From positions 1 to 7,980 of the forward strand of contig JAGOEF010000069.1 in NCBI GenBank assembly GCA_017997855.1: a stretch of DNA of 7,980 bases, read 5' to 3'. Below the pieces are notes generated by a model, which was given only the letters and a program-made list of their open reading frames with translations, was not told the DNA's origin and searched no databases. Shown in pieces: positions 6,673 through 7,971 of this stretch (positions are counted from its first letter, which is position 1; each line of letters starts with the position of its first letter). Position numbers and translations under genes: made by a program. Origin of the DNA: Bacteroidales bacterium (GTDB lineage Bacteria > Bacteroidota > Bacteroidia > Bacteroidales > ML635J-15).

Positions 6673-6696
6673 AGAGACGCGATAAATCGCGTCTCT
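6673..6696. repeat. Hairpin with 11-bp arms, AGAGACGCGAT-AA-ATCGCGTCTCT
   Basis: The arms 6673-6683 and 6686-6696 are perfect and separated by AA. The same 10-base core CGATAAATCG also occurs at 6638-6647, exactly 42 bases upstream. The hairpin ends two bases before the 21-bp array begins and has no following T-run suited to a plus-strand terminator until the array itself. It resembles a dispersed REP-like repeat of Bacteroidota, from memory. Confidence 0.85.
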
Positions 6697-6698
6697 AC

Positions 6699-6950
6699 GG
6701 ATGTTTTTTGAATTTGTTTTGTTGTTTTTTGTTTTTGTTGTGATGTTTATTTAATTTGTTTTATTGTTTATTATATTTGTTTTGGTGTTTTTTTATTTTG
6801 TTATGGTGTTTTTTTTATTTGTTGTTGCGTTTTTCTATTTTGTTTTGTTGTTTTTTGTATTTGTTATGGTGTTTTATTAAGTTGTTTTATTGTTTTATAT
6901 ATTTGTATTGATGTTTTGAGAATTTGTTTTGAAATCTAATTGAATGTAAT
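6699..6950. repeat. 21-bp tandem array, eleven clear units plus one decayed unit, T/G-rich, ending at the start codon
   Basis: Cutting from 6699 in steps of 21 gives twelve units without any insertion or deletion. The consensus is TGNTGTTTTTT for unit positions 1-11 and NWATTTGTTN for positions 12-21. G at positions 5 and 18 is present in all of the first eleven units (6699-6929), as is TTT at 6-8. Positions 3, 12, 13 and 21 vary. The twelfth unit (6930-6950) matches poorly, yet its length brings the frame exactly to the ATG at 6951. No two units are identical; the closest pair (6720-6740 and 6846-6866) differs at two sites. Counts over the 252 bases are 46 G and 3 C. The T-tracts fall about 10.5 bp apart, which suggests intrinsic curvature. 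The array could be promoter-proximal DNA, a U-rich leader or both. All six frames contain stops, so it is not coding. Confidence 0.93.
6898..6905 (+). promoter_or_regulatory. Possible -7 promoter element (TATATTTG) inside the array
   Basis: TATATTTG in unit ten matches the Bacteroidota -7 consensus TAnnTTTG and lies 45 bases before the ATG at 6951. The same octamer occurs in unit four at 6772-6779. I found no good TTTG -33 element at the usual 19-21 base spacing for either, because array TTTG motifs recur every 21 bp rather than about 27. In such T/G-rich repeats the match could be chance. Confidence 0.25.
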
Positions 6951-7925
6951 ATGACGAAACAAGAAGTGGGACAGTATGTAATGGAACGTACGCTGCGGGA
7001 AGTGGTGAGGAATCATTGGGGAATCGCACAGAATTTGCCGGGAATGGAGGCAATGGTTGCGCAATGGGATGAGAATGTGTTGCGAATTGATGCGGCACGG
7101 AAGGTACAGGAGGTGAGTGTGAAGGGGTTTTGTGTGCGGAAGAAGCAACTGCGGGAGGAGATGACGGAGGTGATACTGGATGTATGCCGGAAGATGTTTA
7201 GTTATGGGCGGATGACCGGAAATGAGGTTGTGGCGGCGACCACGGCGTATAGTAAGCGTGATTTCGTGAATGCGGCTGACACGGTGGTGCGCGATATTGC
7301 AGAGGTGGTTTGGAAGTGTGCATATAGTGAGCTTGGGAATGTTGGGGCATACGGTGTTGATGAAGCGTTGCTGGCTAAAGGCAGGGCGGCGATTGACCGG
7401 TATGTTGAGTCGATAGCGGAACCTCGGTTGGCGGCTGTGAAACGGAAAGGGGCAACAAGGATTATTGGGGATTTGTTGCGGCAGGATTTGGGTTTGCTGC
7501 AGGGTATGGATTTGTTGATGGAGCTGGTGCGGGTGAGTGAGCCCGGGTTTTATGGGCAGTATTGTAGCGCAAGGCGGGTTTATGTGATGGGCAGGGAACG
7601 GATGGCGCTGAAGCTAAGGGTTGTTGATGTAGTATCGGGTGAGGGTATTTCGGGTGTGAAGGTGGTGGTTAGGACATCGGAGAAGGGCGAGGTGGTGATG
7701 CGGAAGGTGACGGCTGCGGGTGGTGGGATGTATGTAAGGAATATGCCGAACGGCCGGTATTGGGTTGATTTTTTGAAGACGGGGTTCCGGCCTGAGGGTC
7801 GTGAGGTTTTTGTGAATACGGGCGAGATGTGGAAGATGGAAGTGGAAATGGAAAAAGAGGGAGTGAGGAGAGTTAGTGAGGAGGAATTCGGATTTGTGAT
7901 TGAAGATTTAAGATGTGGATGTTAA
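6951..7925 (+). CDS. Hypothetical cytosolic protein: helical N-terminal domain plus C-terminal carboxypeptidase-regulatory-like beta-sandwich
   Basis: This 324-residue protein is the only real plus-strand gene here. Residues about 1-215 are predicted helical by eye, with motifs TLREVVRNHWGI (14-25), SYGRMTGNEVVAATTAYSKRDF (split at 84-94 and 95-105), EPRLAAVKRKGAT (157-169) and EPGFYGQYCSAR (197-208). Residues about 219-301 resemble a carboxypeptidase-regulatory-like/Ig-like sandwich: LKLRVVDVVSGEGISGVKV, then GMYVRNMPNGRYWVDF (259-274), KTGFRPEG and GEMWKMEVEM. No signal peptide or membrane helix is seen, so it should be cytosolic, unusual for that C-terminal fold. The N-terminal half reminds me of an unnamed Bacteroidota family, recalled from memory only. 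Codons are purine- and G-rich: 7081-7140 has 27 G and 6 C. ATG at 6951 directly abuts a 21-bp repeat array, and a heptamer repeat follows the stop. Function unknown. Confidence 0.82.
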   Translation: MTKQEVGQYVMERTLREVVRNHWGIAQNLPGMEAMVAQWDENVLRIDAARKVQEVSVKGFCVRKKQLREEMTEVILDVCRKMFSYGRMTGNEVVAATTAYSKRDFVNAADTVVRDIAEVVWKCAYSELGNVGAYGVDEALLAKGRAAIDRYVESIAEPRLAAVKRKGATRIIGDLLRQDLGLLQGMDLLMELVRVSEPGFYGQYCSARRVYVMGRERMALKLRVVDVVSGEGISGVKVVVRTSEKGEVVMRKVTAAGGGMYVRNMPNGRYWVDFLKTGFRPEGREVFVNTGEMWKMEVEMEKEGVRRVSEEEFGFVIEDLRCGC

Positions 7926-7933
7926 ATGTTTTT

Positions 7934-7971
7934 ATGTAAAATGTAAAATGTAAAATGTAAAATGTAAAATG
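7934..7971. repeat. Heptamer tandem repeat (ATGTAAA)x5 plus ATG
   Basis: Five perfect copies of ATGTAAA occupy 7934-7968, followed by a partial ATG at 7969-7971. The repeat begins 8 bases after the stop codon of the 324-residue gene. Perfect copies suggest recent slippage, in contrast to the diverged upstream array. No hairpin or T-run marks a terminator for the gene in the remaining window. What lies beyond 7980 is not visible. Confidence 0.95.

What the first reader, a model, noticed from the sequence alone, without database searches (positions are those of the whole stretch)
6699..6950. Indel-free 21-bp array running exactly to a start codon
Eleven clear units and one decayed unit keep a strict 21-bp register over 252 bases although no two units are identical and some columns are freely variable. 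Neutral tandem repeats that have diverged this far normally collect single-base indels, so selection appears to act on spacing while invariant columns (G5, TTT at 6-8, G18) suggest a bound factor or structure. The array stops at the base before the ATG of an orphan gene. I know of no described element with this layout. It could be a multivalent protein-binding leader, a U-rich mRNA leader or an architectural DNA element.
Basis: seen in the sequence. Interest (0 to 1): 0.87.

Follow-up and report, generated by a model that had tools for sequence, protein, structure and literature searches.

The report
Helically phased 21-bp upstream DNA arrays
In front of a gene of unknown function lies a stretch of DNA repeated every 21 letters, exactly two turns of the double helix, and many distant relatives of that gene carry their own array with the same spacing but a different sequence, which points to an undescribed kind of DNA-protein control or assembly site.

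Summary
The array is real: 11 units of 21 bp (6699-6929); the proposed 12th unit is not. It is no local accident. The gene belongs to a multi-copy Bacteroidota family whose ~215-aa helical N-terminal domain matched no curated model. A free period scan (10-60 bp) upstream of 99 homologues found arrays before 55; 51 have period 21 or 42. Unit sequences differ from locus to locus; in 34 arrays 449 of 453 spacings are exactly 21 bp despite 28% divergence from consensus. A second, at best distantly related family has them too (13 of 16 genes). Conservation inside the unit recurs every 10.5 bp, once per helical turn (weaker in held-out arrays); period 3 is depleted, so the array is not coding. In 386 kb around 20 genes, 21-bp arrays were found only upstream of the family gene. 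Against: two clades (23 genes, all from one genome family) lack arrays. Most likely a phased, locus-specific DNA-binding platform, perhaps read by the encoded protein. The binder is unproven: no DNA-binding fold was recognised, the domains are near neutral, and the supposed two modules do not recognisably resemble each other. No description was found in the open-access library searched.

The parts
6699..6929 (+). 11-unit, 21-bp-period non-coding array, consensus about g.TGTTTTtT..aTTTGTTtT (unit boundary arbitrary; extracted register starts one base later); two conserved boxes about one helical turn apart
   Evidence: stops in all six frames
6930..6950 (+). spacer between array and start codon; not a repeat unit
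   Evidence: log-odds -15.3, shuffle p 0.31
6951..7925 (+). 324-aa protein: all-helical N-terminal domain (~215 aa, no curated family match) plus C-terminal carboxypeptidase-regulatory/transthyretin-like domain (residues 221-293)

Best explanation
The array is a cis-acting double-stranded DNA platform. Each 21-bp unit holds two short conserved boxes about 10.5 bp apart. A bound protein can therefore contact one face of the helix once per turn, and 21 bp is the shortest whole number of base pairs that keeps every unit on that face. The simplest candidate is the product of the adjacent gene, whose N-terminal domain may be two ~100-aa helical modules, each reading one half-unit. Cooperative binding would then repress or tune the gene itself or assemble a nucleoprotein filament. 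Shown: the layout, the exact spacing, its recurrence, column-specific conservation, and 10.5-bp periodicity. Inferred: protein binding, the identity of the binder, the module-to-half-unit reading, autoregulation.
For: Recurrence: within 700 bp upstream, 36 of 70 discovery homologues and 19 of 29 held-out ones have an array; the best period is 21 or 42 in 33 and 18 of these, with periods 10-60 all allowed. Spacing: 449 of 453 spacings are 21 bp, with 2841 mismatches in 10227 bp, in 34 arrays. Place: in 20 regions (386 kb) 21/42-bp arrays at score 18 or more occur only upstream of the family gene, in 19 of the 20. Selection on columns: column variance exceeds a star null at p<0.01 in 25 of 34 arrays and a duplication null (60 simulations) at p<=0.05 in 18 of 34. 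Helical face: conservation power at 10.5 bp is z 8.6 in 34 arrays (31 first-set, 3 second-family), and z 4.5 in 12 second-family arrays (3 of these loci were also). It is z 2.3 in 19 held-out arrays, and p 0.005 against a smoothness-matched null in 26 arrays. Motif follows protein: Mantel r 0.50, 0 of 2000 permutations, 28 arrays. Modules: the second family's ~105-aa N-terminal part aligns best to the second half of the window domain (hhalign probability 77) and weakly to the first (5.7). Its units are dyad-symmetric in 8 of 12 arrays, against 3 of 28 in the first family (Fisher p 7e-4).
Against: The N-domain model has no recognised DNA-binding fold: Foldseek best E 0.18, generic helical-bundle matches. 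Array-linked domains are near neutral (median net charge -1, some -9). Many family members lack arrays: 27 of 55 full-length strong discovery genes in the scan, 21 of them from four related genomes; one of the 27 (L121) has its array further upstream. Among held-out genes 10 of 29 have no array. Motif similarity among close paralogues can be plain common descent. The 10.5-bp signal is weak in the held-out set (z 2.3, against 2.2 at 21 bp). The two halves of the first family's own domain do not recognisably match each other (hhalign probability 0.5, E 0.056), against the two-module idea. The dyad counts include related pairs (L120/L128 in the first family; L198/L204 in the second), and the held-out first-family count is 2 of 19. 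In 4 of 20 regions a divergent XRE-type gene next to the array is an alternative binder.
Confidence: 0.45

Rival explanations
1. The array is a phased DNA platform, but its reader is a separate regulator (for example the divergent XRE-type protein at some loci, or an unlinked factor), not the adjacent gene's product.
For: A divergent XRE-type gene flanks the array in 4 of 20 regions, G006 twice and G138 twice. The larger array-less clade carries a palindromic GTAG-N-CTAC element in 10 of 17 genes, against 0 of 34 array genes, which looks like a promoter with another regulator's site.
Against: Arrays in one genome differ in sequence, so one global factor is unlikely to read all. No neighbour gene within 6 kb is common: the largest neighbour cluster covers 6 of 20 regions. 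The motif of L116/L121 has no further array in its genome among the places examined.
Confidence: 0.25
2. The array acts as RNA: a transcribed leader or a precursor of short guide-like RNAs, in the manner of TIGR or CRISPR arrays.
For: One gene beside one array, with conserved and variable segments in each unit. Second-family arrays fold better than shuffles (z below -2 on at least one strand in 10 of 12), as palindromic units would.
Against: First-family arrays are not structured as RNA (1 of 24 with sense z below -2, 0 of 24 antisense). Conservation follows 10.5 bp, expected of B-DNA rather than of RNA guides. Variable segments are short, mostly under 10 nt. No Nop domain was found.
Confidence: 0.12
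3. Intrinsically curved or architectural DNA: the sequence sets DNA shape rather than a protein site.
For: Exact two-turn period; the window array is T-rich. In the 12 second-family arrays A/T power at 10.5 bp is 0.158, the largest of the four values shown, without a null.
Against: A/T content has no 10.5-bp component over 34 arrays (z -0.5); GC-rich arrays exist (L112, L174).
Confidence: 0.08
4. Neutral minisatellite or remnant of a heptad-repeat coding region.
For: Higher-order periods (42, 63; in L097 about 105 by eye) show unit duplication; some arrays are open in one frame, as in L082.
Against: Same period with differing sequences at many loci; column-specific conservation; period-3 conservation depleted (z -2.8); the window array is closed in all six frames.
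Confidence: 0.04

Closest known systems
Iteron arrays of plasmid replicons with their Rep proteins (recalled, not read up here)
   Same: Direct repeats of about two helical turns upstream of one gene, sequence private to each replicon
   Different: No Rep or winged-helix match (for the window protein, for ten homologues); several copies per genome on long contigs; up to 24 units
Centromere-like repeat arrays of plasmid partition systems (parC/ParR, tubC/TubR; passages of PMC5016525 seen)
   Same: Upstream direct-repeat array; there a cooperative nucleoprotein complex and autoregulation, here only proposed
   Different: Those come with an NTPase and a centromere-binding protein; no common second gene was found here
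TIGR-Tas (PMC12045711; passages seen)
   Same: Compact repeat array with conserved and variable segments next to a single gene
   Different: TIGR units are processed to 36-nt RNAs, with alternating 8-12-nt repeats and 9-nt spacers and a Nop-domain protein; here 21 bp and no Nop match
DUF6261 (PF19775) family
   Same: L103, a weak homologue, gives a weak match (E 0.077); 2 of 5 DUF6261 genes have clear upstream arrays (L129, L132)
   Different: Arrays there have period 42 or 41; the window protein does not match the model

Membership tests
TIGR-Tas | Nop domain in the adjacent protein | tested here: not met
   No Nop model among Pfam hits of the window protein (E<=0.1) or ten homologues (E<=1); fold comparison inconclusive
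TIGR-Tas | Alternating 8-12-nt repeats with 9-nt spacers, processed to 36-nt RNAs | tested here: not met
   Unit is 21 bp in 449 of 453 spacings; RNA processing itself not testable
Iteron replicon | Array of about 17-22-bp direct repeats upstream of the gene (range recalled) | tested here: met
Iteron replicon | Rep initiator (winged-helix) encoded by the gene | tested here: not met
   No Rep model among hits of the window protein (E<=0.1) or ten homologues (E<=1); predicted all-helical bundle
Iteron replicon | Array drives replication of a plasmid | not testable with these tools
   Window neighbours are ordinary genes; no plasmid match by DNA or for one homologue protein
Plasmid partition centromere | Cognate NTPase gene in the same locus | tested here: not met
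   Neighbour ORFs within 6 kb in 20 regions share no common gene; the ORFs were not annotated one by one
CRISPR array | 25-36-nt repeats with spacers of similar size | tested here: not met
   repeat size from the TIGR paper's description of CRISPR
DUF6261 (PF19775) | Match of the protein to the Pfam model | tested here: not met
   No hit of the window protein; of ten homologues only L103, weakly, E 0.077
Heptad-repeat coding region | Open reading frame and codon-periodic conservation | tested here: not met
   Stops in all six frames of the window array; period-3 power below null

The most novel reading that the evidence does not exclude
Bacteroidota carry an undescribed class of self-addressed gene-array units: multi-copy helical proteins made of ~100-aa modules, each module reading one 10.5-bp half-unit of a private array upstream of its own gene. 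Two-module proteins read asymmetric units; single-module proteins bind as dimers to palindromic units. This would be a new modular mode of sequence-specific DNA recognition, with its code already written next to each gene. (Odds lowered from 0.22 to 0.20 on checking, because the two halves of the domain do not match each other.)
Probability: 0.2. Interest if true: 0.94.

Novelty: categorically new. Interest (0 to 1): 0.85.

Why it matters
A DNA element whose sequence changes from locus to locus while its spacing is held to exactly two helical turns is unusual, and the adjacent protein families have no known function. If the product reads its own array, every locus supplies a paired protein and target, so the recognition rules could be worked out by comparison and tested in E. 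coli. Even if another factor binds, the arrays mark a functionally dark group of Bacteroidota genes.

Tried and rejected
Coding origin: rejected. The L149 'array' lies in a Gly/Thr/Ser-rich coding stretch and was left out of the extracted arrays. L265 is a 14/16-bp repeat, not a 21-bp array, but it is one of the 19 arrays in the periodicity figure. L113 may merge two arrays; it was left out of the periodicity tests, as were L183 and L109. further left out L117, L120, L121 (near-copies) and L181, L095 (nearly uniform units); one search's first-family set left out L117, L120, L121 and the weak homologues L103, L114, L119, L181.

Rfam: only a sub-threshold CrcZ match (E 0.13, 18.2 bits against a cut-off of 95). 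PADLOC: none; PHROGs: four matches, each of a single member of 27. NCBIfam: eight weak matches, each of a single member of 10, none for the window. Pfam on ten homologues gave only matches under the curated cut-offs, among them two DNA-binding-type models for L082 (I-TevI_DNA-bd E 0.12, Terminase_4 E 0.39). Plasmids and phages: no match. Viral contigs: none. The first genome-contig scan with the gene family found nothing; the allowed second one used the neighbouring PgpH-like protein.

A search for trans copies of the L116/L121 motif in G279 gave 24 matches to a two-box pattern (control 4). Twelve lie in the two known arrays; four of the other twelve were read and none is in an array; the other eight were not read.

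Paper searches found no description of such arrays. The listing (28 papers: titles and abstract starts) shows unrelated 21-bp repeats. The library holds open-access papers only.

Full report
1. The observation. The window array is 11 units of 21 bp at 6699-6929. Its period score is 23.8, against a maximum of 7.3 in 500 dinucleotide-preserving shuffles. The supposed 12th unit is not a unit. All six frames contain stops.

2. The gene. The 324-aa product has an N-terminal all-helical domain (AlphaFold2 mean pLDDT 93.5 for the domain alone) and a C-terminal carboxypeptidase-regulatory/transthyretin-like domain. A protein search gave only four relatives. Pfam matches only the C-terminal domain; NCBIfam, PADLOC and PHROGs give nothing for the window's N-domain. 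The window comes from an uncultured Bacteroidota: its PgpH-like protein is 60% identical to one named from a Bacteroidales bacterium. No whole genome is held for it.

3. Relatives carry arrays. Of 12 genomes reached through the PgpH-like gene, 3 had matches. GWF2_38_335 (G006) has four homologues of the N-domain, all with arrays (lags 21, 42 and 63). A second genome (G004) has three: L082 with an array, L085 without, and L087 with only 217 bp upstream. The remaining matches (L083, L089) cover the C-terminal domain only. A phylum sample gave homologues in 15 of 296 genomes and, with a better model and a largely overlapping sample, 18 of 395. Unit sequences differ between loci, for example GGTCAAGCAAACGTCGCTCAA (L081), TTCATTGCATTGTAAACTATG (L084) and TGTTTAATGTCACATTCGATC (L086) in the same genome.

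4. Tally. With periods 10-60 allowed and only 700 bp upstream used, the discovery set has 70 genes with at least 400 bp upstream. Of these, 36 have an array; the best period is 21 in 25, 42 in 8, 41 in 2 and 15 in 1. The held-out set (families of G138 and G267) has 29 such genes; 19 have an array: 21 in 15, 42 in 3, 16 in 1. Of 55 full-length strong discovery genes, 28 have an array within 700 bp. Of the 27 without, 21 come from four genomes (G308-G311) that I sampled on purpose as relatives of G279; the others are L122, L124, L125, L085, L176 and L121, whose array lies 640-1000 bp upstream. L092 alternates 20- and 21-bp units.

5. Spacing. Chaining units with spacings 15-27 allowed gives 449 of 453 spacings of 21 bp in 34 arrays, with 2841 mismatches in 10227 bp. 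The arrays were first extracted in a fixed register, so the chain is a partial, not an independent, test. Control: 80 PgpH-linked loci (1164 overlapping 1.5-kb chunks) hold 12 arrays of any period at score 18 or more. Two have period 21, and one of these (L034) also stands upstream of a second-family gene. In 20 array-bearing regions (386 kb) 21/42-bp arrays at that score occur only upstream of the family gene, on either strand, in 19 of 20.

6. Selection inside the unit. Column variance exceeds equal-rate nulls in most arrays (25 of 34 star p<0.01; 18 of 34 duplication model p<=0.05). The conservation profile has a 10.5-bp component: z 8.6 in 34 arrays, z 7.1 in 24 first-family and z 4.5 in 12 second-family arrays (these overlap), and z 2.3 in 19 held-out arrays, one of them the 14-bp repeat L265. 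Shuffling columns ignores smoothness; with a smoothness-matched null in 26 arrays p is 0.005. Period 3 is depleted and A/T content has no 10.5-bp component, but has a 7-bp one (z 5.9) that I cannot explain.

7. Motif and protein. Among 28 arrays, motif similarity follows protein identity (Mantel r 0.50, 0 of 2000; r 0.31 among pairs below 45%). L116 and L121 (63-64% identical) share CGAAAA-N-TTACA boxes. Some distant pairs also resemble each other above the shuffled-column maximum of 0.55 (L128/L123 0.69; L094/L121 0.67; L115/L121 0.61), so motif space may be limited.

8. A second family. The L034 product and relatives (a ~105-aa N-terminal part, helical by the look of its sequence, and other C-terminal domains) have arrays of best period 21 or 42 in 13 of 16 genes; one of these, L203, is the same locus as L183 of the first set. 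Their units are often palindromic (8 of 12 with p<0.05, L203 left out, against 3 of 28 in the first family; Fisher p 7e-4), though some of these arrays belong to related paralogues. A profile comparison links the N-terminal part to the second half of the first family's domain at probability 77 and to the first half at 5.7, but the two halves do not match each other (0.5). So the idea that two-module proteins read asymmetric and single-module proteins symmetric units is a suggestion only.

9. Array-less relatives. On a quick tree of 56 proteins the array label needs 5 changes against 18.5 in shuffles. Two clades (17 and 6 genes) lack arrays; all 23 genes come from G279 and its family (G308-G311). 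Ten of 17 genes of the larger clade carry GTAG-N9-CTAC-like palindromes in the upstream 450 bp, against none of 34 array genes. The window itself sits on a long branch, so its place in the tree is unsure.

10. Mechanism. The data fit a double-stranded, single-face, locus-specific binding platform. The encoded protein is the only constant partner (the loci were chosen by that gene), but its fold and charge give no support for DNA binding, and a divergent XRE-type gene is present at four of 20 regions. I put about 0.7 on a DNA-binding platform of some kind and 0.45 on the full statement with the cognate product as reader (own estimates).

11. Known systems. Plasmid iterons (recalled) and partition centromeres (passages of PMC5016525) are the closest in layout; TIGR arrays (passages of PMC12045711) in look. 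None is met in its defining protein. Paper searches gave no description, within an open-access library.

Noticed in passing
window 6673-6696: Inverted repeat AGAGACGCG-ATAAAT-CGCGTCTCT ends 2 bp before the array; a similar GAGACACG...CGTGTCTC repeat follows the 41-bp array of L132 (near 928-950). Possibly a dispersed Bacteroidota repeat.
   Followed up: no
34 arrays (31 first-set, 3 second-family): A/T content inside the 21-bp unit is periodic at 7 bp (z 5.9), not at 10.5 bp; the 7-bp power is 0.192 in 24 first-family arrays and 0.107 in 12 second-family ones (no null there). Unexplained.
   Followed up: partly
L084, L086, L099, L111 (and L165): A small XRE-type helix-turn-helix-like gene is transcribed divergently; at the first four it lies on the far side of the array (4 of 20 regions), at L165 next to a partial homologue without a 21-bp array. 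XRE label recalled, not scanned.
   Followed up: partly
L135-L138, L140-L142, L145, L153, L157: Array-less relatives carry a GTAGG-N7-CCTAC-like palindrome 119-399 bp upstream (10 of 17).
   Followed up: partly
L132 685-903, L092, L191: Arrays of period 41; in L092 units alternate 20 and 21 bp with boxes GGAAT and GCAAAAC.
   Followed up: partly
L070 10497-10626: A 21-bp array in a Bacteroidaceae MAG with no first-family gene on the fetched locus; the second-family model was not run there.
   Followed up: no
L108 -1103 to -868: A separate strong 16-bp-period array further upstream of an array-bearing gene.
   Followed up: no
L082 96-1238: The array is read in frame as the C-terminal part of the upstream ORF (heptapeptide A-P-E-V-Y-Q-M type); probably chance.
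   Followed up: no
window 7934-7971: Perfect ATGTAAA repeats just downstream of the gene.
   Followed up: no
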